From Actinomycetospora termitidis (lineage in GTDB: Bacteria > Actinomycetota > Actinomycetes > Mycobacteriales > Pseudonocardiaceae), in the NCBI RefSeq assembly GCF_030286555.1, contig NZ_JASVWF010000001.1, forward strand, positions 620,001-684,000: a DNA stretch of 64,000 nt, written 5' to 3'. The number at the start of each line of letters is the position of its first letter. Positions within the stretch are counted from its first letter, which is position 1. Shown in pieces: positions 31,809-45,024 of the stretch. A program made the translations under genes and the position numbers. Under the pieces are notes generated by a model that was not told the DNA's origin, searched no databases, and saw nothing but the letters and a program-made list of their open reading frames with translations.

Positions 31809-31848
31809 CTGATGTCAGCGGTGCGGCCATGCTGACACCGGACGTCAC
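31809..31848 (+). repeat. Dispersed repeat family A, copy 1
   Basis: Forty bases that match 40470-40509 at 38 positions, in the same orientation. The core is a short stem, TGTCAGC..GCTGACA around GTGCGGCCAT, and continues ACCGGACGTCAC. It lies upstream of, and overlaps the alternative start of, the serine hydrolase gene. Confidence 0.85.
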
Positions 31849-31862
31849 GGACGTCGGCGGTA

Positions 31863-32594
31863 TCAGCGCGGCACGACGAGGAGCAGCGACGTCTCGCCGG
31901 CCCGCTCCACCCGCAGCCCCGCGTCGGCGAGCACCGCGAGGACGGCGCCGGTGTCCTTCGGGCGACGGCGGGTCGAGGCGAGCAGCCGGGCGGCGCGCCC
32001 CTTGAACGACTTGTTCGCGTGGCTGACCGTGCTCCGCGACCCGTCGGGCGCCTCGGAGACGACGTCCAGCGTGGTGGCGCCGCGGGCGGGCGCGAGGGCC
32101 ATGTACCCGCCGGATCGCAGGTCGACCACGTGCTCGTCGAGATCGGCCAGCACCGGGCCCAGCACCGGCCGCCACACCGTGCGCAGCCCGCCGTACCCGG
32201 GCACGGCGGAGTCGGCGGACAGCCGGTAGGCCGGGATCGGGTCGGTACCCATGACGAGGCCGAACAGCGCCGAGCACACCGCGATCCGCCCACGGGCGCC
32301 CGGCGTCAGGGACGGGGCGTCCAGCGCGTCGTAGAGCACCCCGGTGTAGCGCCGCAGCGCCGGGGCCGTCCGGGCGGTCCACAGCGCGGCGTTGCGCTCG
32401 ATCTCGTCGTCCTGGCGCTCGCTCACGCCGAGGGCGGTCCGCGAGGCGGGGACGTCGTCGGCGAGGGCGACGACGGCGTCGACGAGCTTCGCGCGGGTGT
32501 CGGTCAACGACGGGAACGACAGTGCATCCAGGTCGAGCGGCGTCCCGCGGCCGCCGGACGCCTTCGTCTCGGAGGGTGGGAGGACGACGAGCAC
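31863..32594 (-). CDS. yaaA: Peroxide stress protein YaaA (UPF0246)
   Basis: Predicted 243-aa cytosolic protein of the YaaA/DUF328 family. The start MLVVLPPSETK and the internal RIAVCSALFGLV, DPIPAYRLSADSAVPG and NKSFKGRAARLL segments are characteristic. In Escherichia coli, YaaA limits free iron and Fenton damage during peroxide stress; the same role here is inference. GTG 32594 is used as start. The divergent phosphotransferase begins only 38 bases away. Confidence 0.85.
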   Translation of the reverse strand: MLVVLPPSETKASGGRGTPLDLDALSFPSLTDTRAKLVDAVVALADDVPASRTALGVSERQDDEIERNAALWTARTAPALRRYTGVLYDALDAPSLTPGARGRIAVCSALFGLVMGTDPIPAYRLSADSAVPGYGGLRTVWRPVLGPVLADLDEHVVDLRSGGYMALAPARGATTLDVVSEAPDGSRSTVSHANKSFKGRAARLLASTRRRPKDTGAVLAVLADAGLRVERAGETSLLLVVPR

Positions 32595-33562: not shown

Positions 33563-36500
33563 GTGGATTCCCCTGCCCGGTGGCAGCCGTCGCGCGCCGG
33601 GATCCTGAACGTCTACCAGTACCAGGACGAGGTGCTGGACTTCGGCGGCGGCCGTCTGCTGCTGCGCGGGGTGAACGGCTCGGGCAAGTCGACGGCGATG
33701 AACATGCTGCTGCCGTTCCTGCTCGAGGCCGACGTGCGCAAGATCGACGCGGCCGGGGAGCAGCGCGGGGTGCTCCGCTCCTGGATGCTCTCGGACAACG
33801 AGGACACCCAGCGGACCGGCTACCTGTGGATCGAGTTCGTGCGGGCCGGGGAGTACCGCACGGTCGGCTGCGGGATCCGCGCCAACCGGTCGACCGACCG
33901 CGTCACCACCTGGTGGTTCTCCACCGACCGGCGGGCGAGGCTGGACTTCCGGCTCACCGAGGCCGACGTGCCGTTCTCGGCGGACGCGCTGCGCTCCGAG
34001 CTCGGCACCCGAGGGCAGGTGTTCACCTCCACCGCCGAGTACCGCGCCGAGGTCGCCCGCCGGTTCTTCGGCGGCACCGACCCGACGGCGTACTTCCGGC
34101 TGCTCCACCAGGTCCGCAACCCGCGCGTCGGTGACCGTATCGACACCGACCTGCCCCGCACCCTGCGCGAGGCCCTGCCCCCGGTGCCCGAGGACGCGGT
34201 CAACGACGCCGCGCAGCCCCTCGAGGACCTCGAGGACCACCGGCGCAACGTCACCGACCTGGCCACGACCGCTGAGGCGCTCGACGGGGTCGTGGAGGTC
34301 TACACCGACTACGCGCGCCGCGTGCTGATGACCGCGGTCGAGGGCGCCGCGGCCGCGGTCGACGCGGCCCGGACCGCGACCCGGCGCGTGGAGCGCGAGC
34401 GGAACGCCGCGCAGCGGGCCACGACCGCCCGCGACGAGGCCGTCCGCGTCGTCGGCGAGCTGACCGACGAGCACGCCCGCGCCACCTCCGAGCGGCAGGG
34501 CCTGGTGAGCCTGCCGGAGTACTCCGCGCACGCCGACCTCGTCCGCCGTCGCGACGAGCTGTCCCGCGCCGACGAGGCGGCGGGCACCCTGGACGGCGTC
34601 CGCGGCCGCGCGCTCGCGCGGGTCACCACGGCCGCCGGGAGCGCCGCCGGGGCGAAGGGGCAGGTGGAATCGGACCTCGCCGGGGTCGCGGAGCACCTGC
34701 GTGAGGTGGCGACGGCGGCCCGGGCGGCCTCCGCGCCGGTCCGGCTCCCCGACCCGCCGGCGCTCGTCACCGAACCCCGCGACGACGCCGCGAGCGGGAC
34801 CTCGCTGGACGTCCCGGAGGACGGCGGCACCGAGCCCGCCGAGGACCTCCCCGCCGCGCTCGTCGGGGTGGCCGACGGGCTGCGTACGCACCGCACGACC
34901 ATCCGCGACCTGCGTGAACGCGCCGGCGCGGCCGATCGCGAGACCGCCTCCGCCGCCCGCGCCGAGGACGAGGCGGCCGAGGCGGGCGAGCGCGCGGCCG
35001 AGGCCGCCGAGCAGGCCGACGTCGCCCGCCGGGCCGCGCGGGTGGCGGCCGACGAGCACACCGAGGCCGTTGCGGCCTGGCAGGAGCGGTTCCGGGCGCA
35101 CCTCGCAGCGGTCCCCGCGGCCGAGCCGGGCGGCACCGCCGGCTGGCTGCCGGCCCCGGCCCGCGAGGCCGAGGGCGAGCCGGTCGACGACCTCCGGGCC
35201 CGCGCCGAGGCCCTCGTCGGCGCCGCCCGGCGTGCGGCCGACGACGCCTCCGGCGCACTGTCCGCGGCGCGGGCCCGCGCGACCGGCCGGGTCGGCGAGG
35301 TCGACGACGAGCTCGCCGCGCTACGCGCCGAGCACGCCCGGGTCGAGGCCGCCGGGGAACTGCCGCTGCCCCGTGAGCCGTGGCGGACGGATGCAGGCGT
35401 CGACGACGCCGTGCTGTTCGCGTCGCTGGTCGACTTCGCCGACGACCTCGACGACGCCGCCCGCGCGGGCCTCGAGGCGGCCCTGGAGGCCTCGGGTCTG
35501 CTCGCCGCCCGGGTCGACCCGGACGGGCAGCTGCGCGGGGAGGGTGGCGAGCTGCTCGTGACGGCGGGTCATCCCGTCGGCCCGGGACCCCGGCTGGTGC
35601 CCGTCGACACCGGCACGGTGCCCGTGGAGGTCGTGGCGGGCGTGCTCGGGGCCCTCGGGACGGCGCCGGGCGCGGCGCTGTGGGTCGGCGAGGACGGGTC
35701 GTTCGGGGCGGGCCCGCTGCGCGGCCGGCACACGAAGCCCGCCGCGGAGTACGTCGGCGCCGGAGCGCGCGAACAGGCCCGCGCCCGGCGGCTCGCCGAG
35801 CTGGCGGCGCAGGTGGACGACGCCGAGTCGCGCCTCGCGGCCGCCCGGGGGGTCGCTGAGGCCCTCGACGAGCACGCCGAGACCCTCCGGCGCCTGGTCC
35901 GCGAGCTGCCCGGCACCCGCACCGTGGACGACGCGGTGGTCGCCGCGACCGGCGCCGACCGCTACGCGCAGGAGGCCCGCGGCCGCGCCGCGGAGCGGAC
36001 CGCGGCGGCCGCCGAGGCACGCCGTCGGGCGGACGATGCCGTCGCCCGGCTGCAGCAGGAGGCCGCGGAGACCGGCCTGCCCACCGACCCCGAGCGGCTC
36101 GAGGGCCTGCTCGAGGCGATCACGGACGCCGAACGGGCCCTGGCGGCCGTGGAGGCGGCCGGGGAGCGGGTGCGGCGCAGCACCCGGTCGTGGCGCGAGG
36201 CGATCACGGCGTGGGAGCGCGAGGTCACGGACCTGGGCGCGGCCGTGGCGGACCACCGCGCCGCCGCCGGCCACGCGGCGTCGGTGCGCACGGAGCTCGA
36301 GACCGCCGAGTCGGCCCTGGGCGAGGAACCGGCCAAGGTCGCGGCCCGGGTCACCGAGCTCGACGGGCACCTGCGGGAGACCGCGGGCCGGGTGGACGCG
36401 GCCCGCGAGGAGCAGACGACCGCGACGGTCGCCGTGCGGGAGGCGGAGCTGCGCGTGGAGTCCGCCCGCGAGACGCTCGCCGAGCGCGAGAAGGCCGCCG

Positions 36501-37747
36501 TCGGCGCGCGCGCCCGGCTGGTCGATGCGCTCGAGGTACCGGGGCTGCTGGCGGCGGCGGAGCGCGAGCCTGCTGCCGGTGGCGACCCCGCTCCTTCTGC
36601 ACGAACGGGCCGTTCGTCACCTTCTTCCGTGACGAACGGCCCGTTCGTGCCGGAGGGCGGGGACGGCGAGAGCGCGGACAGCGCAGCCGACTGGTCCGAG
36701 GAGCCGATGCCGGTCACACCGGACACGGTCGAGGGTGCCGCGGAGCTGGTCGACGCCCTGCGCGAGCGGCTGCCCGCGCCGCGGCGTCAGGTCACCGAGG
36801 ACGCGCTGGAGAAGGCGCTGCGCGAGACGCGCGACCGGCTGGCGTCGGGCTGGGACATCGAGTCCCGGCGCGGCCGGGACGGTGCCGACGGCACCCCGCT
36901 CGCCGTGCACGTCACCGGCCCGACGCGTGCGGTGCTCGCGCAGATGGTGCACCGGGTCGCGGTCCAGCGGCGGCGGGCGACGAGCCTGCTCTCGGCGCAA
37001 CAGGACCAGGCGCTGCGCAACCTGCTGCACGGCCGCATCGCCCGCGAGGTCGCGGACGCACTGTTCGCGGCCGGTGAGCTGGTCGAGCGGATGAACCGGA
37101 TCCTGCGCGGGGTCACGTCCAGCCAGGGGATCGGCGTCCGGCTCCAGTGGCGCCCGCGGGGCGATCTCGAGTCGGAGACGGCGACGGCTCTCGAGCTGCT
37201 CGGCAAGCACCCCGACCTCCGGTCCCCCGAGGAGGACGACCAGGTCCGCGAGGCGGTGAAGACCCTCGTCGAGCAGGCCCGCGCGGCCGACCCGGAGGCG
37301 TCCTACCGCACCGTCATCTCCGACGTCCTGGACTACCGGACCTGGCACGAGATGCGCATCTACCTGCGCCGTCCGGGGCGCAACGACGAGCTGCTGACGC
37401 GGCGCACGACGCTGTCCGAGGGCGAGAAGAAGCTGGTCACGGTGCTGCCGATGGCCAGCGCGGCCGCCGCGAGCGCCGCCGCCCACGACCCGCACGCGGT
37501 CGGTGCGCCGCGCCTGGTGCTGCTCGACGACGCGTTCGCGAAGGTCTCCGAGGACAACCACGCGAAGCTGTTCGGGCTCCTCGTGGACCTGGACGTGGAC
37601 TTCGTCGTCACCTCCGAGCGGCTCTGGGGCACGCACCCCAACGTCCCCGAGCTCGCGATCACCGAGGTGCTGCGCGACCCGGAGCTGCGCGCGATCGCGC
37701 TGGTGCACTACCGCTGGAACGGCCACGAGCTGTCCGTGGGGGCCTGA
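33563..37747 (+). CDS. jetC: Wadjet type II JetC, SMC/MukB-like ATPase (TIGR02680 family)
   Basis: Predicted 1394-aa SMC-like motor of the JetABCD anti-plasmid complex, which extrudes plasmid DNA for cleavage by JetD. Walker A GVNGSGKST is at residues 36-44, in RLLLRGVNGSGKSTAMNMLL. Signature LSEGEKKL is near 1282 and Walker B RLVLLDDAF near 1316, then VTSERLWG. Between them are long Ala/Glu/Arg-rich coiled coils. The N-terminal 200 residues (YQYQDEVLDFGGG; LSDNEDTQRTGYLWIEF; FFGGTDPTAYFRLLHQVRNP) match TIGR02680. A 52-bp perfect palindrome lies in frame at residues 1013-1029, in a linker. The GTG start is 24 bases after the phosphotransferase; the next gene, jetA, begins one base after the stop. 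Confidence 0.9.
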   Translation: MDSPARWQPSRAGILNVYQYQDEVLDFGGGRLLLRGVNGSGKSTAMNMLLPFLLEADVRKIDAAGEQRGVLRSWMLSDNEDTQRTGYLWIEFVRAGEYRTVGCGIRANRSTDRVTTWWFSTDRRARLDFRLTEADVPFSADALRSELGTRGQVFTSTAEYRAEVARRFFGGTDPTAYFRLLHQVRNPRVGDRIDTDLPRTLREALPPVPEDAVNDAAQPLEDLEDHRRNVTDLATTAEALDGVVEVYTDYARRVLMTAVEGAAAAVDAARTATRRVERERNAAQRATTARDEAVRVVGELTDEHARATSERQGLVSLPEYSAHADLVRRRDELSRADEAAGTLDGVRGRALARVTTAAGSAAGAKGQVESDLAGVAEHLREVATAARAASAPVRLPDPPALVTEPRDDAASGTSLDVPEDGGTEPAEDLPAALVGVADGLRTHRTTIRDLRERAGAADRETASAARAEDEAAEAGERAAEAAEQADVARRAARVAADEHTEAVAAWQERFRAHLAAVPAAEPGGTAGWLPAPAREAEGEPVDDLRARAEALVGAARRAADDASGALSAARARATGRVGEVDDELAALRAEHARVEAAGELPLPREPWRTDAGVDDAVLFASLVDFADDLDDAARAGLEAALEASGLLAARVDPDGQLRGEGGELLVTAGHPVGPGPRLVPVDTGTVPVEVVAGVLGALGTAPGAALWVGEDGSFGAGPLRGRHTKPAAEYVGAGAREQARARRLAELAAQVDDAESRLAAARGVAEALDEHAETLRRLVRELPGTRTVDDAVVAATGADRYAQEARGRAAERTAAAAEARRRADDAVARLQQEAAETGLPTDPERLEGLLEAITDAERALAAVEAAGERVRRSTRSWREAITAWEREVTDLGAAVADHRAAAGHAASVRTELETAESALGEEPAKVAARVTELDGHLRETAGRVDAAREEQTTATVAVREAELRVESARETLAEREKAAVGARARLVDALEVPGLLAAAEREPAAGGDPAPSARTGRSSPSSVTNGPFVPEGGDGESADSAADWSEEPMPVTPDTVEGAAELVDALRERLPAPRRQVTEDALEKALRETRDRLASGWDIESRRGRDGADGTPLAVHVTGPTRAVLAQMVHRVAVQRRRATSLLSAQQDQALRNLLHGRIAREVADALFAAGELVERMNRILRGVTSSQGIGVRLQWRPRGDLESETATALELLGKHPDLRSPEEDDQVREAVKTLVEQARAADPEASYRTVISDVLDYRTWHEMRIYLRRPGRNDELLTRRTTLSEGEKKLVTVLPMASAAAASAAAHDPHAVGAPRLVLLDDAFAKVSEDNHAKLFGLLVDLDVDFVVTSERLWGTHPNVPELAITEVLRDPELRAIALVHYRWNGHELSVGA
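36599..36650. repeat. Perfect palindromic element inside jetC (family C)
   Basis: Arms 36599-36620 and 36629-36650 are perfectly complementary over 22 bp around the 8-base loop CTTCTTCC. Each arm also contains the near-palindrome ACGAACGGGCCGTTCGT. The element is a multiple of three minus two bases long but read in frame as ARTGRSSPSSVTNGPFV. It shares the words ACGAACGG and CCGTTCGT with family B at 18339 and 39230, so it may be an inserted or captured intergenic repeat. Confidence 0.85.
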
Positions 37748-37748
37748 C

Positions 37749-39218
37749 GTGGGCACCACGATCCGGCCGGTCGTCTTCTCCTACGTCACCGAGTCGCCGG
37801 AGTACCGGTGGATCCTGGCCGTCTTCGCGGGCACGTTCTTCGCGGAGCTGACGCCGGGGGAGGTCGCCGCGCGGCTGGCCGAGGCCGGGCACGAGCTGGA
37901 CGAGGCCACCGTCAAGATCCGCCTCGACCAGCTGCGGACGTGGGGCAACCTCGAGGTTTCCGCGTCGGTCGGGCAGGTCGGCACGGTCGAGGACTACTAC
38001 CGCCGTCGGGACCGCTACCTGATCACGCGGGTCGGCCAGGAGGTGCACGACCTCGTCGAGGGGGTCCTCGCGCAGGTCGACGACGTCCGGGACGTCTCGC
38101 TGGGCCGCCTCGAGCAGCTCCGCGCCGCGCTGGATACGCTGTCCGGGCTGGACGCCGCGACCGCCCCGCCGGACCGGCTCGCCGAGGCCGTCCGTGCGGT
38201 GTTCGACCCGCACGTCGCGTTCTCGGCCGAGATCACCCAGTTCTTCGCGGCGATCAACCAGTGGCAGTCGCGGTTCGACCTCGACGAGGACGAGTTCGCG
38301 TTCTTCTCCGAGGTGCTGATCGGCTACGTCGGCGAGCGGCTGGAGACGCTGCGGCGGTCCGCGCGCCCGATCGCGGGCCTGCTCGTCGAGCTCGGACCCG
38401 TCGTCGGGACGATCGTGGACCGGGCGGCCGACGGCCTGGCCGCCCGCGTCGCCGCGGCCGGCCTGTCGGCGGTGCGGGTCCGGCGGGAGCCCGGTGGGGC
38501 GACCGCGGACTGGGACAACCTCGCCTCGTGGTTCGTGTCCACCCCGGGCCGCCCGAGCCGGGTCCAGACGCTGGAACGGGACGCGGTCGACGCCGTCCGG
38601 ACCCTCACCCAGAACCTGACCCGCCTCTCCCGCACCGGGACGGCGGGATCGTCGCGGCGGGTGGACTTCCTGCGGCTCGCGGGGTTCTTCGCGCACGCCC
38701 CCGCGCCGCGCGCGCACGAGCTGGCCGCCGCCGCGTTCGGGCTCTACGGCGCCCGGCACCTCGGTGTCGCCGGCGGCGACGACACCGATCCCGTCGACCC
38801 CACCGTGTCGTGGTGGGACGCGCCGGTCGCGACGGTGCCGGTGTCGCTGCGCGAGCGCGGCGACACGACCAGCCGTGGCCGGACCTCCCGCGTGCAGGAC
38901 CGCACCCAGGAGCGTCGGCACCTGCTGGCCCGCAAGGCCGAGGTCGAGAAGCGGGCCGCCGCGGCGCGGGCGGAGCTGCTCGAGAGCGGTGCGGACGGGT
39001 TCGCCGCCCGCCTCTCCGAACCGGCGCTGCGCGAGCTGCAGCGGGTGCTCACCCGCGCGGTGGCGGACCTGGGCCCGGACTCGTCGTCGGGAAGCATCGT
39101 CCTCGACGGCGTGCGCTGCGAGGTCCGGCGGGAGCCGGGGACGACGACGTCCGTGCCGACCCACGCGGGCGCGCTGCGGGTGGAGGGTCTGGTGCTGACG
39201 GTCGAGGCGGCGCCGTGA
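37749..39218 (+). CDS. jetA: Wadjet type II JetA, kleisin-like subunit (DUF2397/TIGR02677)
   Basis: Predicted 489-aa protein of the DUF2397 family. Hallmarks are the start RPVVFSYVTESPEYRWILAVFAGTFF, then the winged-helix-like ATVKIRLDQLRTWGNLEV, RRDRYLITRVGQEVHDLVE, the FSAEITQFFAAINQWQSRFDLDEDEFAFFSEVLIGYV segment near 160-200, and VEALAW-type C-terminal helices. In Wadjet systems JetA bridges the two JetC heads. GTG 37749 begins one base after the jetC stop. The 82-bp gap to jetB holds a family B repeat, 39230-39283. Confidence 0.88.
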   Translation: MGTTIRPVVFSYVTESPEYRWILAVFAGTFFAELTPGEVAARLAEAGHELDEATVKIRLDQLRTWGNLEVSASVGQVGTVEDYYRRRDRYLITRVGQEVHDLVEGVLAQVDDVRDVSLGRLEQLRAALDTLSGLDAATAPPDRLAEAVRAVFDPHVAFSAEITQFFAAINQWQSRFDLDEDEFAFFSEVLIGYVGERLETLRRSARPIAGLLVELGPVVGTIVDRAADGLAARVAAAGLSAVRVRREPGGATADWDNLASWFVSTPGRPSRVQTLERDAVDAVRTLTQNLTRLSRTGTAGSSRRVDFLRLAGFFAHAPAPRAHELAAAAFGLYGARHLGVAGGDDTDPVDPTVSWWDAPVATVPVSLRERGDTTSRGRTSRVQDRTQERRHLLARKAEVEKRAAAARAELLESGADGFAARLSEPALRELQRVLTRAVADLGPDSSSGSIVLDGVRCEVRREPGTTTSVPTHAGALRVEGLVLTVEAAP

Positions 39219-39229
39219 GCGCATCCGGG

Positions 39230-39283
39230 GTGAACGAACGGCACTCTCGCGCGCCTGGAGGTTGCGAGAGTGCCGTTCGCTCC
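39230..39283. repeat. Dispersed palindromic repeat family B, copy 2 (jetA-jetB gap)
   Basis: GTGAACGAACGGCACTCTCG plus C (39230-39250) faces GCGAGAGTGCCGTTCGCTC (39264-39282). The left arm is the exact complement of the right arm at 18373-18393. Lying between two operon genes, it could act as a partial terminator or mRNA stabiliser. Confidence 0.8.
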
Positions 39284-39300
39284 GGACGAGGCAGTGCCCC

Positions 39301-40461
39301 GTGAGCGCGCCGGCCACCGACCCGCAGCGCGACGGCGAGCTCGTCGCGGCGACGCGGGCCCTGCTCGCGCGGCCGTGGCGCACCGCGGAGACCGACCCGG
39401 ACCTCGTCGCCCTGATCCGGCGGCACGCCGACGCCCTCGACGCGTGGTTCACGCAGGAGCTGAACTACCGGCTCGTCGTCACCGCGGACACCGTGCGGCT
39501 GGTGAAGACGGGGCACGTCCCGGCGGACCGCCCGCTGCGCACGGTGTCCGCCTCGCCGCGGCCGTTCACCTCGGCCGAGTACACCGCGTTGGCGCTGGTC
39601 CTGGCGGCGACGACGTCGGGTCCGGACCGCACCAGCCTGCGCGACCTGGTCAACGCGGTGCACTCCGCGGCAGCGGAGGCGGGGGTCGTGCTCGACACCG
39701 ACGCCGCGTCGCGGCGGGCCCTGGTGACGGCGCTGCGCTGGCTGATCGCGCAGGGGATGATCCGCGAGCTCGACCGCGGGGTCGCGGTCTACGAGCACGA
39801 CGCGGACGCGGATGCGCTGCTCGAGGTGCGTCAGGACCGGATGGCGCTGCTCCCGACGGGGGCCGTCGTGGGCGCGGAGACGCCGGACGAGCTCGTCGAC
39901 CGGGCGCGGGAGCGGGGCTCGGCGGCCACGGCGGCGCGGCGGCGGCTGGTCGAGGACCCGGTCGTGCTGGCGTCGGACCTGGACACCGCGCGGTTCGCCG
40001 AGCTGCGTCGCCGCGCCGGGGACGAGGGCCGCCGGATCGAGGCGCGCACCGGTCTCGTGCTCGAGGCGCGCGCGGAGGGGCTCGCGGCGCTCGACGTCGA
40101 CGGTGGGTGCTCCGACGTCGCGTTCCCGACCGGCGGCACCGTCCCGCACGCGGCGTTGCTGCTGGTCAGCGAGCTGGTGTACCAGTTCCGGCCCGCCGAG
40201 GACCCGGAGCCGATCCCCTGGGCCTCCGTGCGCGAGGTCCTCGACGAGCTGGTCGCCGAGCACGGCCGGTACTGGTCGAAGGCCGCGCTCGCCGATCGCG
40301 ACCGGTTCGCCGCCGACGTGCTCGCCCTGCTGGTGTCGATGCGCCTGGTCGGGGTGGCCGACGACGGCGCCGTCCGGGTGCTGCCGCCGGCCGCGCGGTA
40401 CACGCCGGACGTCATAGTCGTCGAGGGCGAGGACGTCGAGGAGCAGCCGACGCTGCTGTAG
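39301..40461 (+). CDS. jetB: Wadjet type II JetB (DUF2398/TIGR02678)
   Basis: Predicted 386-aa protein of the DUF2398 family. Recognisable parts are LVAATRALLARPW, DPDLVALIRRHADALDAWFTQELNYRLVVTADTVRLVK (near residue 25-60), FTSAEYTALALVLAA, LRWLIAQGMIRELDRGV and the acidic end VIVVEGEDVEEQ. In type II Wadjet, JetB is the second accessory (winged-helix, MukE-like) subunit of the loop-extruding complex. GTG at 39301 comes after the family B element, whereas the frame is open further into it. The next gene on this strand is the WYL regulator. Confidence 0.88.
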   Translation: MSAPATDPQRDGELVAATRALLARPWRTAETDPDLVALIRRHADALDAWFTQELNYRLVVTADTVRLVKTGHVPADRPLRTVSASPRPFTSAEYTALALVLAATTSGPDRTSLRDLVNAVHSAAAEAGVVLDTDAASRRALVTALRWLIAQGMIRELDRGVAVYEHDADADALLEVRQDRMALLPTGAVVGAETPDELVDRARERGSAATAARRRLVEDPVVLASDLDTARFAELRRRAGDEGRRIEARTGLVLEARAEGLAALDVDGGCSDVAFPTGGTVPHAALLLVSELVYQFRPAEDPEPIPWASVREVLDELVAEHGRYWSKAALADRDRFAADVLALLVSMRLVGVADDGAVRVLPPAARYTPDVIVVEGEDVEEQPTLL

Positions 40462-40469
40462 CCGTCGCC

Positions 40470-40509
40470 CTGGTGTCAGCAGTGCGGCCATGCTGACACC
40501 GGACGTCAC
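40470..40509 (+). repeat. Dispersed repeat family A, copy 2
   Basis: Direct repeat of 31809-31848 with 38 of 40 identical bases. GTGTCAGCA pairs with TGCTGACAC around GTGCGGCCA (9-bp perfect stem). It lies between the stops of jetB and the convergent VOC gene, so it may be a bidirectional terminator. Confidence 0.85.
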
Positions 40510-40523
40510 ACATGCCGCCATGA

Positions 40524-40943
40524 TCACGGCGCCCGGTGGCACACCGCCTCCAGGTTCACGCCCTCCGGGTCGCGGACGAACGCGCCGTAGTAGTCCGGGT
40601 GGTACTCCGGGCACACGCCCGGCTCGCGCAGCACCGTGGCCCCGGCGGCGAGCGCGGCCGCGAAGAACGCGTCGACCACGTCGCGGTCCGGGGCCGTGAA
40701 CGCCACGTGGGTGTCGCTGTCGTGGTGCACCTCCCGCCCGGCGTCGATCACCCAGAAGAAGGGCTTCGCGTCGACGCCGAACGCGTGCATCGCCTTCTGC
40801 CCCGACGCCGGGTCGGGCAGGACGTGCAGGAGGCTCGTGATCCCGAGCGGTGCGAGCGCGGCGGTGTGGAACGCGATCGCGCGGTCGAGGTCGGCGACGG
40901 GCAGGTTCAGGTGGTCGATCGACGATCCTTCGAGGCTGGTCAT
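40524..40943 (-). CDS. VOC (glyoxalase/bleomycin-resistance fold) protein
   Basis: Predicted 139-aa single VOC domain with two beta-alpha-beta-beta-beta modules: SIDHLNLPVADLDRAIAFHTAAL, then THVAFTAPDRDVVDAFFAAAL. HLN and the final DPEGVNLEAV give the His/Glu metal positions. The family includes glyoxalase-, dioxygenase- and antibiotic-binding proteins; catalytic activity cannot be fixed. It is divergent from the WYL regulator with only 62 bases between starts. VOC/WYL-type pairs like this are common in actinobacteria, so the pair may be a unit that inserted into the Wadjet locus. Confidence 0.82.
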   Translation of the reverse strand: MTSLEGSSIDHLNLPVADLDRAIAFHTAALAPLGITSLLHVLPDPASGQKAMHAFGVDAKPFFWVIDAGREVHHDSDTHVAFTAPDRDVVDAFFAAALAAGATVLREPGVCPEYHPDYYGAFVRDPEGVNLEAVCHRAP

Positions 40944-41005
40944 GTCCGCACGATGGCAGCAGGAGCGGCCGCCGGATGGCCGCTTGTCCGGCAGGATGCA
41001 GGATC

Positions 41006-41968
41006 GTGGCCACCACCTCGGCGAGGACCCTGCGCCTGCTGTCGATGCTCGGTGCGGGACGGACGTGGTCGGGGCCGGAACTGTGCGACCGGCTGGGCGT
41101 CTCGCCACGGACCCTGCGCCGCGACGTCGAGGTGCTGCGCGAGATGGGGTACGCCGTCGACCCGGTCAAGGGCATCGGCGGCGGCTACCGGCTCGGCCCC
41201 GGCGGGGCGCTGCCGCCCGTCGTGCTGGATGAGGACCAGGTCGTCGCGGTCGTGGTGGCGCTGCAGACCGCGTCGACGGCGTTACGGGGGATCGAGGAGT
41301 CCGCGCAGCGCGCACTCGCCGCGCTGCGCCACGTCATGCCGCGCCGGCTGCGGACGGACGCCGACCTGCCGATCATCCCCGTCGTCAACCAGTGGGAGTT
41401 CCCGGCCGAGCCGATCGAGGCCGCGCTCGTGCGCGAGGTCGGGGCGGCGGTCCGCCGCCGGCAGGTGCTGCGCCTGGACGACGACGGGGACCCCCTGCGG
41501 GTCGAACCCCACCACCTCGTGGTCTGGGCCGCCCGCTGGTACCTGGTCGCCTTCGACCTGTGGGCCGCACGGTGGCGGGTCCTGCGGCTCGACCGGATCA
41601 CGGTGCACCCCCCGACCGGGGCCGGGTTCGCCGAGCGACCCCTTCCCGACGGCGGGCCCGTCGAGTTCGTGCGCCACACCGCCGACCGCGGCGACCGGCC
41701 GGCGCCCTGGCCCTGCCTGGGCCACGTCGAGCTGGCGCTGCCCGCCGCGGTGGTCGCGGAGTTCGCGCCGGGAGGGGCCGTCGTCGAGGCGGTCTCGACG
41801 ACGAGTTGCCGCCTCACGATGGGCGCGTGGTCCTGGAGCGGGCTCGCCGGGTTGTACCTGACCTTCGGAGCGGAGATGACCCACGTCGAGCCCGCGGAGC
41901 TGCGGGAGGCGTTCGGCGCGGCGCACGCACGTCTCGCGCGGGCCGTGGTCGTCGGGGGGTCGTCCTAG
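41006..41968 (+). CDS. HTH-WYL (YafY/DeoR-like) transcriptional regulator
   Basis: Predicted 320-aa regulator. The N-terminal HTH is TLRLLSMLGAGRTWSGPELCDRLGVSPRTLRRDVEVLREMGYAVD with GGGYRL as wing. The WYL-domain sequence is VEPHHLVVWAARWYLVAFDLWAARWRVLRLDRI near residue 175-210, which here carries WYL as RWYLVAFD. C-terminal helices resemble WCX. WYL proteins bind nucleic-acid or nucleotide ligands and often control defence loci. Here it lies between jetB and jetD and is followed closely by the TPR-like gene and jetD on the same strand. Its target (VOC gene or jet genes) is inference. Confidence 0.85.
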   Translation: MATTSARTLRLLSMLGAGRTWSGPELCDRLGVSPRTLRRDVEVLREMGYAVDPVKGIGGGYRLGPGGALPPVVLDEDQVVAVVVALQTASTALRGIEESAQRALAALRHVMPRRLRTDADLPIIPVVNQWEFPAEPIEAALVREVGAAVRRRQVLRLDDDGDPLRVEPHHLVVWAARWYLVAFDLWAARWRVLRLDRITVHPPTGAGFAERPLPDGGPVEFVRHTADRGDRPAPWPCLGHVELALPAAVVAEFAPGGAVVEAVSTTSCRLTMGAWSWSGLAGLYLTFGAEMTHVEPAELREAFGAAHARLARAVVVGGSS

Positions 41969-41987
41969 TGTGCGGGGCGTGGACGTG

Positions 41988-42437
41988 ATGGCGGAGGTCG
42001 GGGCGGCGGTCGAGCAGGGGCGGGCGGGCGAGGCGGCCGAGGCACGGCGTCGGCTGACGCAGCTGTGGCACGACCCGGCGGCGCAGGCCGACCCGTTCCG
42101 CCGGTGCGCGCTGGCCCACTACGCCGCCGACCTCGAGGAGGACGTCCTCGACGAGATCCGTTGGGACCTCCGGGCGCTCGACGCGGCCGACGCGATCCCA
42201 CCGGACCACGGGACCCCGGTCGACGTCGCGGCCATGTACCCGTCGTTGCACCTCAACCTGGGCGACGCCTACCTCCGGGCCCGGGATCTGCCGAGCGCCG
42301 TCCACCACCTCGAGCGTGCGCGGGCCGCGGTGGGCGCCCTTCCCGACGACGGGTACGGCCGCATGATCCGCGGTGGCATCGACGGCCTGGCGGAACGCGT
42401 CGCGGACGAGCACGCACGTCAGGGTCGTCGCTGGTGA
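41988..42437 (+). CDS. TPR-like small protein in the jetD operon
   Basis: Predicted 149-aa helical protein. The segment MYPSLHLNLGDAYLRARDLPSAVHHLERARAAVGAL near residue 90-120 is a clear TPR-type helix pair; the rest (ALAHYAADLEEDVLDEIRWDLRALDAAD) is helical. No catalytic motif. Start is uncertain among GTG 41979, GTG 41985 and ATG 41988. The WYL gene ends 19 bases upstream and jetD begins 49 bases downstream, so the three are probably one operon. Widespread TPR-like proteins of this type are of unknown function. Confidence 0.72.
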   Translation: MAEVGAAVEQGRAGEAAEARRRLTQLWHDPAAQADPFRRCALAHYAADLEEDVLDEIRWDLRALDAADAIPPDHGTPVDVAAMYPSLHLNLGDAYLRARDLPSAVHHLERARAAVGALPDDGYGRMIRGGIDGLAERVADEHARQGRRW

Positions 42438-42486
42438 ACCGGTCGCTCGGTGAGGAGCCGGACCACACCGCGGTGGTGCACCCGGG

Positions 42487-43665
42487 ATGACGCTTCCGCC
42501 GGTCCTGCTGCAACCTGAATTCCTCCCGCTGTGGCAGCACGTGTCGGCAACGCTCGACCGGCGTGGCCTGCACGATCGTGGCTGGGTGTCCCTGCCCGAC
42601 GGACTCCCGCCGGCCGTCCGCGCCCGCCTCCGGGAACTGGTGCCCGGCCGCTCGACCCGCCGTCTGGACCTCGCCCAGCTCGACCGCGCGCTCGATCGCC
42701 ACGGCGCCGACCTGCTCACCCTGCTCGTGGCCGCGGGCTGCTCGCCGACGGGCCGGCGCGAGGCACGCGATGCCGACCGCGATCGGCGGGCCCGGCGCGA
42801 CGGCGCACTCGTGGACGCCGCGCGGGCGTCGCTCGGGGAGCAGCCGTGGGTGACGGCGTGGGTCGAGGTGGTCCGTCCGGGGCTCCCCGACGACGAGGCG
42901 GCCCGGGCCGCCGTCGACACGGTCGCCCGCGTGCTCGCCGTCGCCGGCGAGCCGGGACCGCGCAGCCGGGCCGAGGTCGCCGCGCAGGCGCTGGGCGACG
43001 CCCACGAGCTCGACCGCGGCACGCCCTCGCGCCGGCTGGTCGGCCAGGCGCTCGCGTGCCGATCGGGTCGGGACCGCTGGGACGACCCGGCCCTCTGGGA
43101 GGACGCCGGGCTGCCCGGGGACCTCGTCGCGACCCCGGTCCTCACCTGGGGGCTGCCGCTGCTGGGCGGCGGCCTCGCGGCCGCGACCCGGGCGGCCACC
43201 GGAGCCGGCGCACCGAGCTACCTGTCGACGCTGAACCTCCGGGACCTCGCCGTCGACGTCCCGCCCGGCACGGTCGTGCTCGGCGTGGAGAATCCCCGGC
43301 TGCTCGAGGCGGCCGTCCAGCGCGGACTGGACGTGCCGATGCTGTGCACCCTCGGCAACCCGACGACCGCGCCGCTGACGCTGATCCGGGCCCTGCTCGA
43401 GGCCGGCGCGGAGGTGCGCCACCACGGCGACTTCGACCCGGCCGGCGTCGCGATCACGGCCCGCCTGGCGCAGCTCGGCGTCGTCCCGTGGCACATGACC
43501 GCGGCCGACTACCGGCAGGCGCTGACCCCCGACCTGCGTCGCTTCACCGACCCGGTCCCGCCGACGCCGTGGGATCCGGAGCTGCAGCGCGCCATGACCG
43601 AGCACGGCCGTGCCGTGGACGAGGAGCGGGTGATGGACGAGCTGCTGGCGAGCATCGACGGGTGA
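42487..43665 (+). CDS. jetD: Wadjet type II JetD, Toprim-type nuclease (DUF3323-DUF2399/TIGR02679)
   Basis: Predicted 392-aa nuclease subunit that cuts the extruded plasmid. The N-terminal half has the DUF3323 pattern (LDLAQLDRALDRHGADLLTLLVAAGC). The C-terminal half is DUF2399, topoisomerase VI-like Toprim: VVLGVENPRLLEAAV near residue 260, with the Glu of VEN, and HHGDFDPAGVAITARLAQLG near 316, with the DxD of GDFDPAG, then the WHMTAADY segment. All expected acidic residues are there, so it looks active. It lies 2 kb from jetB, in a WYL-TPR-jetD operon, which is unusual. Confidence 0.88.
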   Translation: MTLPPVLLQPEFLPLWQHVSATLDRRGLHDRGWVSLPDGLPPAVRARLRELVPGRSTRRLDLAQLDRALDRHGADLLTLLVAAGCSPTGRREARDADRDRRARRDGALVDAARASLGEQPWVTAWVEVVRPGLPDDEAARAAVDTVARVLAVAGEPGPRSRAEVAAQALGDAHELDRGTPSRRLVGQALACRSGRDRWDDPALWEDAGLPGDLVATPVLTWGLPLLGGGLAAATRAATGAGAPSYLSTLNLRDLAVDVPPGTVVLGVENPRLLEAAVQRGLDVPMLCTLGNPTTAPLTLIRALLEAGAEVRHHGDFDPAGVAITARLAQLGVVPWHMTAADYRQALTPDLRRFTDPVPPTPWDPELQRAMTEHGRAVDEERVMDELLASIDG

Positions 43666-44223: not shown

Positions 44224-45024
44224 CTAATCGACTGAGGGGGCCCTCCGCTCGACGGGTGGCGGCGCGGGGCGGGCCGGGACGCCCGTCGGCTCGCCGAGCA
44301 TCTCCCGGGCCACCAACGTCGCCGCGGCCGCACCGATCGGCACCGCGACGATGCCGACCAGCGGGATCAGGCAGAGCAGGTAGGTCGGCACCCCGACCGC
44401 CCAGCCGAGCACCCGACGGGACCGCACGACCCGTCGTCGGGACCCGAACCCGACGCCCCGCCGCTCCAGGGCGGGCGCCGTCAGCTCCAGGACGAGCAGG
44501 CGTCCCCCGACCAGCGCCGCGACCACCGGCACGACCGTCTGCCCCACGACCGGCAGGAACCCGGCGGCGAACAGCGGGATCGCCACCAGCACCGACATCC
44601 CCACCAGCAGCAGCCCGTCGCGCGCGCCGCGGGCCAGAGCCACCGCCCACGACCGCTCCGGCCCGGCCGGCACCCCGCCCACCGTGTCGTCCACGATCTC
44701 GGAGAGCTTCTCGTAGAACGGTCCGCCGATCGCGAGGGTCACGGCGACGAACGTCAGCACCGCGACCAGCGCCACCGCCGCGAGCACCGCGATCCCGACG
44801 ACGACCTCGGTCGCCTCCCGCGCAGTGGGGGACCACGCGTCCGCGAACCCCGTGAGCACGCCGACGAGGTCGCCGAGGTACCGGACGAGCACGACCAGGG
44901 CGACGGCGTAGAGCAGCGCCGTCACCACCGCGGGCAGGGCCCCGAGCCGCAGCAGCCGCGGCGAGCGCAGCACCATCCCGGCCGCCCGCAGGTAGAGGCG
45001 GACACCGAGCGCGAGGTCGGACAC
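44224..45024 (-). CDS. EI24/CysZ-family membrane protein
   Basis: Predicted 266-aa integral membrane protein of the EI24 (CysZ) superfamily: LYLRAAGMVLRSPRLLRLGALPAVVTALLYAVALVVLVRY, GGPFYEKLSEIVDD near residue 100, AVLVFELGAPALE-like and the late helix VPTYLLCLIPLVGIVAVPIGAAAATLVA. Five to six helices are seen. CysZ transports sulfate in enterobacteria; actinobacterial members are mostly uncharacterised. GTG 45024 is chosen because it starts directly before DLALGVRLY. Confidence 0.8.
   Translation of the reverse strand: MSDLALGVRLYLRAAGMVLRSPRLLRLGALPAVVTALLYAVALVVLVRYLGDLVGVLTGFADAWSPTAREATEVVVGIAVLAAVALVAVLTFVAVTLAIGGPFYEKLSEIVDDTVGGVPAGPERSWAVALARGARDGLLLVGMSVLVAIPLFAAGFLPVVGQTVVPVVAALVGGRLLVLELTAPALERRGVGFGSRRRVVRSRRVLGWAVGVPTYLLCLIPLVGIVAVPIGAAAATLVAREMLGEPTGVPARPAPPPVERRAPSVD

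What the first reader, a model, noticed from the sequence alone, without database searches (positions are those of the whole stretch)
33563..43665. Wadjet type II system with rearranged order and detached jetD
jetC-jetA-jetB (TIGR02680, TIGR02677, TIGR02678) are adjacent, but jetD (TIGR02679) is 2.0 kb away behind a convergent VOC gene, a WYL regulator and a TPR-like gene. All key residues of the ATPase and nuclease are visible, so the system looks complete. The TIGR02677-02680 families are described as a conserved four-gene neighbourhood, so a split locus with jetD in another transcription unit is unusual. It could put the nuclease under separate control.
Basis: partly seen in the sequence, partly recalled or inferred. 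Interest (0 to 1): 0.78.

Follow-up and report, generated by a model that had tools for sequence, protein, structure and literature searches.

The report
Plasmid-cutting system with a disposable nuclease
The window carries a complete bacterial anti-plasmid machine of a known kind (type II Wadjet); comparison with relatives shows that its DNA-cutting part is often missing, while the DNA-looping motor is kept at a fixed place on the chromosome, as if the motor had a job of its own.

Summary
In detail: jetC-jetA-jetB-(2.0 kb)-jetD is a complete type II Wadjet locus with intact ATPase and nuclease motifs, in an Actinomycetospora. C-A-B-D is this lineage's normal order: in 12 of 12 loci found outside the genus jetD directly follows jetB. 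Only the block between jetB and jetD is particular to the window. A hairpin and a convergent gene make a separate jetD transcript likely, but WYL control has no support: the nearest orthologues lie elsewhere.

The larger result lies outside the window. All 15 good Actinomycetospora genomes carry jetCAB at one chromosomal site, under purifying selection in the pairs tested, but jetD is at that site in only 6. The state of jetD changes at least five times on the JetCAB tree, and the congruent JetD tree points to losses. A second, cobD-linked jetABC locus shows the same: 14 loci (7 genera) with intact JetD fall on one side of one branch, 59 (19 genera) with dead, truncated or undetected JetD on the other; JetABC is full length in 56 of the 59. 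The likeliest reading is a nuclease-independent, MksBEF-like function of JetABC. That is inferred, not shown. JetD-less type I loci are already in print.

The parts
33563..37747 (+). jetC, SMC ATPase (1394 aa)
   Evidence: TIGR02680 684 bits, PADLOC JetC2 1025 bits; Walker A GVNGSGKST, signature LSEGEKKL, Walker B LVLLDDAF
37749..39218 (+). jetA, kleisin (489 aa)
   Evidence: TIGR02677 209.9 bits, cut-off 165.85; PF09660 378 bits
39301..40461 (+). jetB, KITE subunit (386 aa; open frame starts at 39262)
   Evidence: TIGR02678 134.9 bits, cut-off 124.65; PF09661 285 bits
40463..40510 (.). hairpin right after jetB (10-bp stem, -22.6 kcal/mol), possible terminator between convergent jetB and VOC gene
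   Evidence: sequence and fold; the palindrome lies at 40473-40509, a second copy at 31812-31848
40524..40943 (-). VOC/glyoxalase-fold gene, convergent to jetB; insert, not part of Wadjet
   Evidence: PF00903 35.9 bits; no homologue found in the other jet loci of the genus
41006..41968 (+). WYL-domain regulator (HTH_11-WYL-WCX); insert
   Evidence: nearest orthologues in congeners lie at other loci
41970..42437 (+). small gene of 155 aa, no family match; insert (homologue behind jetB in A. chiangmaiensis, behind jetD in G042)
42487..43665 (+). jetD, Toprim nuclease (392 aa), catalytic Glu (GVENPRLLE) and DxD (GDFDPAG) present
   Evidence: PF09664/PF11796, PADLOC JetD2 278 bits, motifs, model matches MksG 8b7f, JetD 7til and Topo VI A
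31863..32594 (-). yaaA-like flank gene, conserved left neighbour of the jet locus in the genus
   Evidence: PF03883, synteny
44224..45024 (-). EI24/CysZ-like flank gene, conserved right neighbour of the jet locus in the genus
   Evidence: PF07264, synteny

Best explanation
The window holds a complete type II Wadjet. JetC (SMC), JetA (kleisin) and JetB (KITE) form a loop-extruding motor; JetD is the Toprim nuclease that cuts small circular DNA once the motor has recognised it. In this genus the jetC-A-B part has become a fixed, vertically inherited chromosomal locus with a use of its own, and jetD is a loosely attached accessory: retained in the window species, probably pushed into a separate transcription unit by an inserted VOC-WYL-small-gene block, and missing in most sister species. 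Shown here: gene identities, intact motifs, fixed site, jetD absence, congruent trees, purifying selection on CAB in pairs of species without jetD. Inferred: that the complex extrudes DNA and cuts plasmids as studied Wadjets do, that jetD is transcribed separately, that absence means loss, and that nuclease-free JetCAB acts on DNA by itself, as MksBEF does in chromosome organisation.
For: Family models and motifs. JetB in 16 of 18 Actinomycetospora genomes, 15 of 15 good ones; shared flanks in the 16 loci read. The window's kind of jetD is in 7 of 18 genomes: 6 of 15 loci with intact CAB, plus G204 with collapsed CAB. PF09983 finds no other JetD; the housekeeping Smc is present in 15 of 15 good genomes, so JetCAB is no substitute. 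D state changes at least 5 times on the JetCAB tree (18 rows) and 6 on the flank-gene tree (16 rows). The JetD tree has the same main groups, and all 12 loci found outside the genus have jetD behind jetB: repeated loss is likelier than gain. Sister loci L033/L075 differ by a clean presence/absence of 1.3 kb with jetD. dN/dS between D-less loci of the genus: C 0.13-0.27, A 0.12-0.17, B 0.05-0.20, bootstrap upper bounds 0.33 or less for the four pairs bootstrapped. Parallel case at the cobD site: 14 intact and 59 non-intact loci, one change, 19 genera, JetABC in single full-length frames in 56 of 59.
Against: No functional data; 'own function' rests on conservation. JetC dN/dS is somewhat higher between D-less loci of the deep clade (0.24-0.27) than between D-bearing pairs of the other clade (0.16-0.18), though the D/noD pair L092/L094 gives 0.25 and the D-bearing Pseudonocardia pair 0.22. 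In G204 the reverse happened: CAB collapsed, jetD kept. Three of 59 cobD-site D-less loci have a jetC not read in one full frame. In Stenotrophomonas the authors took conserved jetD-less Wadjet I to be probably inactive (PMC11680222, passages). No promoter or terminator was found by consensus scan (uninformative at this G+C). The WYL, VOC and small gene may still affect jetD expression in this species.
Confidence: 0.66

Rival explanations
1. One reading: the split locus is an adaptation that puts the nuclease under separate (WYL) control.
For: jetB is followed by a hairpin and a convergent VOC gene; WYL, small gene and jetD are co-oriented with gaps of 1 and 49 bp, so jetD is probably in the WYL unit. 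WYL regulators occur in other defence loci (recalled; PADLOC lists WYL as CRISPR-associated).
Against: The three nearest orthologues of the WYL gene in congeners sit elsewhere, and none was found in the other 15 genus jet loci. Other congeners have different or no genes between jetB and jetD. The block looks like a chance insertion into a permissive gap.
Confidence: 0.2
2. JetCAB without jetD is a leftover: the nuclease was lost and the motor is decaying without a function.
For: In the genus some absences are recent (L033/L075 are close sisters); G204 shows collapse of CAB. A paper on Stenotrophomonas judges its common jetD-less Wadjet I probably inactive, while finding jetA-C over 95% conserved (PMC11680222, passages).
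Against: dN/dS well below 1 in pairs whose inferred common ancestor already lacked jetD; at the cobD site the non-intact state spans 19 genera yet JetABC is full length in 56 of 59 loci and the ATPase motifs are present.
Confidence: 0.12
3. JetCAB still restricts plasmids in D-less species, with another nuclease acting in trans or by compaction and silencing without cutting (Smc5/6-like).
For: Motor intact. A review states that Smc5/6 could compact circular DNA and prevent expression of viral genes (PMC10586767, passages). Some D-less genomes hold a second, complete Wadjet (for example G166, G019).
Against: 31 family genomes have full-length jetA and no PF09664 match anywhere (PF09983 was not searched outside the genus); in the genus PF09983 adds none. 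No replacement gene is conserved behind the D-less loci.
Confidence: 0.25
4. jetD was not lost but repeatedly gained or exchanged by horizontal transfer onto a nuclease-free core.
For: Parsimony counts cannot tell gain from loss.
Against: The JetD tree has the same main groups as the JetCAB tree within the genus, and the outgroups found carry jetD at the same place; eroded remnants in the same slot at the cobD site point to loss.
Confidence: 0.08

Closest known systems
Type II Wadjet (JetA2-B2-C2-D2; TIGR02677, 02678, 02680, 02679)
   Same: All four proteins match the type II models; JetC and JetA match PDB 9qe0/9qe1 'JetC' and 'JetA' by sequence (JetD finds no PDB sequence); the JetD model matches MksG, JetD and Topo VI A.
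   Different: Order C-A-B-D with 2.0 kb between B and D; JetD below NCBI's TIGR02679 cut-off; the locus is fixed in the genus and jetD is often missing.
MksBEF, the nuclease-free relative of MksBEFG / type I Wadjet
   Same: SMC-kleisin-KITE kept without the Toprim nuclease. A review says MksBEF of P. [quoted passage not shown]
   Different: Here it is the type II lineage, the nuclease decay can be seen in steps among relatives, and the window itself still has its nuclease. No chromosome role is shown.
jetD-less Wadjet I of Stenotrophomonas maltophilia
   Same: jetA, jetB, jetC without jetD, conserved at one site beside RecBCD, over 95% alike across strains (PMC11680222, passages read).
   Different: Type I, one species; the authors call it probably inactive and conserved for DNA recognition. 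Here type II, many genera, and remnants of jetD.
EptABCD of Mycobacterium smegmatis
   Same: An actinobacterial Wadjet whose null mutant takes up plasmids better (PMC10586767, passage).
   Different: Not compared by sequence here.

Membership tests
Type II Wadjet | JetA, JetB, JetC of type II (TIGR02677, 02678, 02680) above curated cut-offs | tested here: met
   209.9/165.85, 134.9/124.65, 684.3/462.85 bits
Type II Wadjet | JetD of type II with Toprim Glu and DxD | tested here: met
   Glu and DxD present, PF09664 and PADLOC JetD2 matched, fold matches MksG/JetD/Topo VI A (model pLDDT 82, TM about 0.3, so domain-level only)
Type II Wadjet | JetD above the curated cut-off of TIGR02679 | tested here: not met
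   170.3 against 196 bits; the A. chibensis orthologue scores 171.6, so the lineage as tested lies below that cut-off; I do not take this as excluding it, given the PF09664 and PADLOC JetD2 matches
Type II Wadjet | four genes as neighbours in one locus | tested here: met
   same strand within 10.1 kb, but 2,025 bp and three other genes between jetB and jetD
Type II Wadjet | restricts plasmids / cuts circular DNA | not testable with these tools
   needs a transformation or cleavage assay
MksBEF-like nuclease-free SMC complex (for the D-less relatives, not the window) | no JetD/MksG at the locus or in the genome | tested here: met
   9 of 15 intact jetCAB loci in the genus without jetD; PF09664, JetD-protein and PF09983 searches. 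Exception G166, which has a second complete system. Of the other 8 D-less species, PF09664 was run on 5; G201, G202 and G207 only by JetD protein and PF09983
MksBEF-like nuclease-free SMC complex (for the D-less relatives, not the window) | acts in chromosome organisation | not testable with these tools
   needs Hi-C, segregation assays or localisation

The most novel reading that the evidence does not exclude
Type II Wadjet has been turned into a nuclease-free, chromosomally fixed SMC complex in Pseudonocardiaceae at least twice: once anciently at the cobD site (19 genera, with catalytically dead or half JetDs as surviving intermediates) and again, still in progress, in Actinomycetospora, where the window species still has the nuclease but probably already outside the motor's transcription unit. 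A third, small case may be genus code g16. This would be a direct view of an immune machine becoming a chromosome-handling machine, a step that the review passages I saw only conjecture for MksBEF.
Probability: 0.5. Interest if true: 0.8.

Novelty: new variant of a known kind. Interest (0 to 1): 0.57.

Why it matters
[quoted passage not shown] Here are sister species that differ in jetD while keeping the same motor at the same site, plus a graded series of dead and truncated JetDs. That makes the question testable by comparing closely related species. It also means that jetABC loci without jetD should not be dismissed as broken defence systems (as probably inactive, PMC11680222), and that presence of jetC does not by itself imply anti-plasmid immunity.

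Tried and rejected
Unique rearrangement: rejected, C-A-B-D is the lineage order. WYL as a Wadjet regulator: no conserved link. JetD in trans of the type I/III kind: PF09983 in the genus matches only the lineage's own jetDs in G118, G204 and G205. Missing housekeeping SMC: rejected. A replacement effector behind D-less loci: none conserved in the loci read. A relaxed JetD-docking patch in JetA/B/C of the cobD clade: no sharp patch; mean pairwise identity intact/non-intact 0.76/0.73 (A), 0.71/0.68 (B), 0.68/0.60 (C) (14 intact and 30 of 59 non-intact loci, at most two per genus). Clean JetC-JetA fusion in A. lutea: the long frame comes with a frameshift near the jetC 3' end. Plasmid origin: in PLSDB the best JetB matches are under 60% identity. 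Promoter scan: empty.

Literature: nine searches of open PMC papers. I saw the listings and, of six papers, passages only. In what I saw nothing reports nuclease-free type II Wadjet; jetD-less type I is reported (PMC11680222). Subscription papers and preprints are mostly not held, and the N. vireti type II structure paper (reference seen) was not read.

Limits: the 73 cobD-site loci were chosen by me from the match tables, not drawn at random. The PF09664 list was cut at about 4e-15, so 'no jetD within 12 kb' (78 of 218 jetA matches) includes degenerate jetDs. jetA matches of 150 bits or less were left out of that count. In 'intact' means over 300 bits with my own HMM and 'absent' means no match with it; L088, so labelled absent, has a 235-aa remnant. 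Trees are quick searches. dN/dS is Nei-Gojobori on pairs that I picked. PF09983 was not searched outside the genus.

Changed on checking: confidence from 0.68 to 0.66, the leftover rival from 0.10 to 0.12, interest from 0.60 to 0.57 and interest if true from 0.82 to 0.80, because one search showed jetD-less type I loci in print and judged probably inactive.
Full report
What is there. The window lies in a 6.56-Mb genome (G000:C1:620001-684000). Its genus code g1 is Actinomycetospora, family Pseudonocardiaceae: contigs of held g1 genomes have the same lengths as named Actinomycetospora records. jetC, jetA, jetB and jetD match the type II Wadjet models in the stated places; JetD falls below the TIGR02679 cut-off. 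Three genes stand between jetB and jetD: a convergent VOC gene, a WYL regulator and a 155-aa gene without a family match. JetC has Walker A, signature and Walker B motifs, and JetD has the Toprim Glu and DxD. The Walker B of this lineage reads LLDD (MLDD in Pseudonocardia) where nearly all other JetCs of the family read so far have LDE; RecF is recalled to read LLDD too. An AlphaFold model of JetD (pLDDT 82, pTM 0.57) finds MksG of C. glutamicum (8b7f), JetD of P. aeruginosa (7til) and Topo VI A first among PDB structures, with TM-scores near 0.3, so this supports the domains rather than their arrangement.

Transcription. jetB and the VOC gene converge. A 10-bp-stem hairpin (-22.6 kcal/mol) follows jetB within 50 bases. 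WYL, the small gene and jetD are co-oriented with gaps of 1 and 49 bp. Separate transcription of jetD is therefore likely but not shown; the consensus scan found no promoter or terminator.

Gene order. The order C-A-B-D is not special to the window. Of 25 loci that the named-genome scan with JetB returned, 13 are Actinomycetospora and 12 are not (two Pseudonocardiales MAGs, two Pseudonocardia, seven Frankia of which two MAGs, one Geodermatophilus; L177-L188). In all 12 jetD lies directly behind jetB; in L184 it is cut by the contig end and in L183 it is read in two frames. Other family loci are A-B-C-D or D-A-B-C.

The genus. All 18 held genomes were searched. JetB is in 16 of 18 and in 15 of 15 good ones. 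A JetD of the window's kind is in 7 of 18; an eighth match, in G166, belongs to a second system about 50 kb away. I read 16 loci. They share flanks (a YaaA-like gene, not called in G205, and an EI24/CysZ-like gene). In 15, jetC-A-B is intact (in G201 with a frameshift near the jetC end); jetD is present in six of these (window, G042, G118 A. chibensis, G135 A. soli, G200 A. endophytica, G205) and absent in nine (G075, G098 A. chiangmaiensis, G151 A. lemnae, G166 A. cinnamomea, G178 A. callitridis, G189 A. straminea, G201 A. lutea, G202, G207 A. succinea). In G204 (84% complete) jetCAB has collapsed to remnants but jetD is whole. Of the seven jetDs, two follow jetB directly and five do not; what stands between differs. 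PF09983, the JetD_C family, gives no further nuclease in the genus, and the housekeeping Smc is present in 15 of 15 good genomes.

Loss rather than gain. On the JetCAB tree (15 genus loci and 3 outgroups) the state of jetD changes at least 5 times; on a tree of seven flank genes (16 loci) at least 6 times. The two trees agree in most groups; G205 falls with the other main group in the flank tree. The JetD tree has the main groups of the flank tree, G205 with G118 and G204 included, so jetD most likely travelled with the locus. The sister species G118 (jetD) and G178 (none) differ by a clean presence/absence of 1.3 kb; G042 and G075 by about 2.1 kb.

Selection. Nei-Gojobori dN/dS between D-less loci of the genus is 0.13-0.27 for jetC, 0.12-0.17 for jetA and 0.05-0.20 for jetB; codon-bootstrap upper bounds are 0.33 or less in the four pairs bootstrapped. 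Four of these loci (L074, L076, L093, L097) share an inferred D-less ancestor. Two genus pairs with jetD give 0.16-0.18, 0.07-0.12 and 0.07-0.08, and jetD itself 0.27-0.31; the D-bearing Pseudonocardia pair gives 0.22, 0.20, 0.25 and for jetD 0.18. So jetD evolves faster than the motor in the genus, but not in every pair tested. At the cobD site D-less or eroded pairs give 0.07-0.35 (C), 0.03-0.24 (A) and 0.06-0.35 (B), and two D-intact pairs 0.26-0.29, 0.20-0.22 and 0.26-0.38. No codon-model test was run.

The wider family. In a 200-genome sample of the family PF09664 matches 118. PF09660 (jetA) matches 146 of the same 200 (no handle twice or missing), with 218 matches above 150 bits in 143 genomes. 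Of these 218, 78 (in 73 genomes) have no listed PF09664 within 12 kb (the list is cut at about 4e-15). 31 genomes with full-length jetA have no PF09664 match at E 0.001. In a sample of the order, of 23 genomes outside the family with jetA, 19 have PF09664.

The cobD-site locus. Most of the unpaired jetAs that I read belong to one orthologous locus: RNase H/CobC, Zn-ribbon, NIF3, aminotransferase, then LMW phosphatase, fructosamine kinase, SURF1, CobD and jetA-jetB-jetC(-jetD). Of the 72 loci of this lineage shown, 68 have at least one of these neighbours and four (g32) have none. With L066 there are 73 loci from 26 genera. 14 loci (7 genera) have intact JetD; 59 (19 genera) do not, and no genus has both. 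On the JetA+JetB tree the two sets lie on the two sides of one branch. The states of decay are graded: in the seven g45 and g33 loci the DxD is kept but the catalytic Glu is replaced in six (not in L164); in the nine g8 loci DxD has become DFT or DFS and the Glu is gone in the one that could be aligned there; in g2 and g11 the Toprim half is missing; in g23 and one g22 locus only fragments were found; elsewhere my HMM found nothing. JetABC reads in single full-length frames in 56 of 59 non-intact and 14 of 14 intact loci. Walker A, signature and Walker B were found in all 59 non-intact loci, in three of them on two frames. The dead JetD of g8 itself has dN/dS 0.11-0.23 over about 287 codons in two pairs, which hints that even the dead subunit may be kept for a structural role. 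A possible third case is genus code g16, where two loci (L091, L144) with a different JetC lack jetD and share some flank genes.

How it most likely works. In the window species all parts for loop extrusion and cutting are present, so plasmid restriction as in studied Wadjets is the default expectation (inferred). Across the genus and the family the motor is what selection keeps, so it probably does something without the nuclease. [quoted passage not shown] Nuclease-free restriction by compaction remains an alternative.

Against this reading. There is no functional evidence. JetC dN/dS is slightly higher in the deep D-less clade. G204 shows the opposite loss. Three D-less cobD-site loci have jetC not in one full frame. 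The cobD-site loci were picked by me from match tables. For Stenotrophomonas, where jetD-less Wadjet I is common and conserved at one site, the authors judged it probably inactive (PMC11680222, passages).

Known or new. Complete type II Wadjet is known, and Wadjet is common in Actinobacteria (42% of genomes; PMC10482375, passages). jetD-less type I loci are in print. In nine searches of open PMC papers (listings and passages seen) I met no report of nuclease-free type II loci. I file the window's system as a member of type II Wadjet and the pattern around it as a new variant.

Noticed in passing
L155-L159, L164, L150 and g8 loci (L090, L112-L114, L118-L122): JetD relatives that have lost catalytic residues (L164 keeps the Glu) yet persist behind jetC; in two g8 pairs dN/dS is 0.11-0.23, a hint of a structural pseudo-nuclease.
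   Followed up: partly
window 31812-31848 and 40473-40509; L033 near 11033: A palindromic intergenic repeat ([A/G]TGTCAGC[A/G]GTGCGGCCATGCTGACACCGGACGTCAC) in two direct copies flanking yaaA-APH-jetC-A-B; a similar one in A. chibensis before jetD. Other congeners carry a different repeat (GTGGCAGGAAAGCGTCGTTGCTGTC) behind jetB and elsewhere.
   Followed up: partly
L093 (A. lutea): jetC and jetA read as one 1857-aa frame because of a frameshift near the jetC 3' end; real or assembly error unknown.
   Followed up: partly
L095 (G204): jetCAB collapsed (jetC 5' fragments and a jetB remnant) while jetD is whole: the reverse of the usual loss.
   Followed up: no
window JetC Walker B, 33563-37747: LLDD instead of LDE in this C-A-B-D lineage (also L103), a RecF-like Walker B (RecF recalled); effect on ATP hydrolysis unknown.
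   Followed up: no
L091, L144 (genus code g16): A third jetABC lineage without jetD, with partly shared flanks such as an MsrA-like gene (name recalled from sequence).
   Followed up: partly
window 44428-44500 (-): ARAGORN calls a 73-nt tRNA-Ser(gga) inside the EI24/CysZ-like coding frame; likely a false positive.
   Followed up: no
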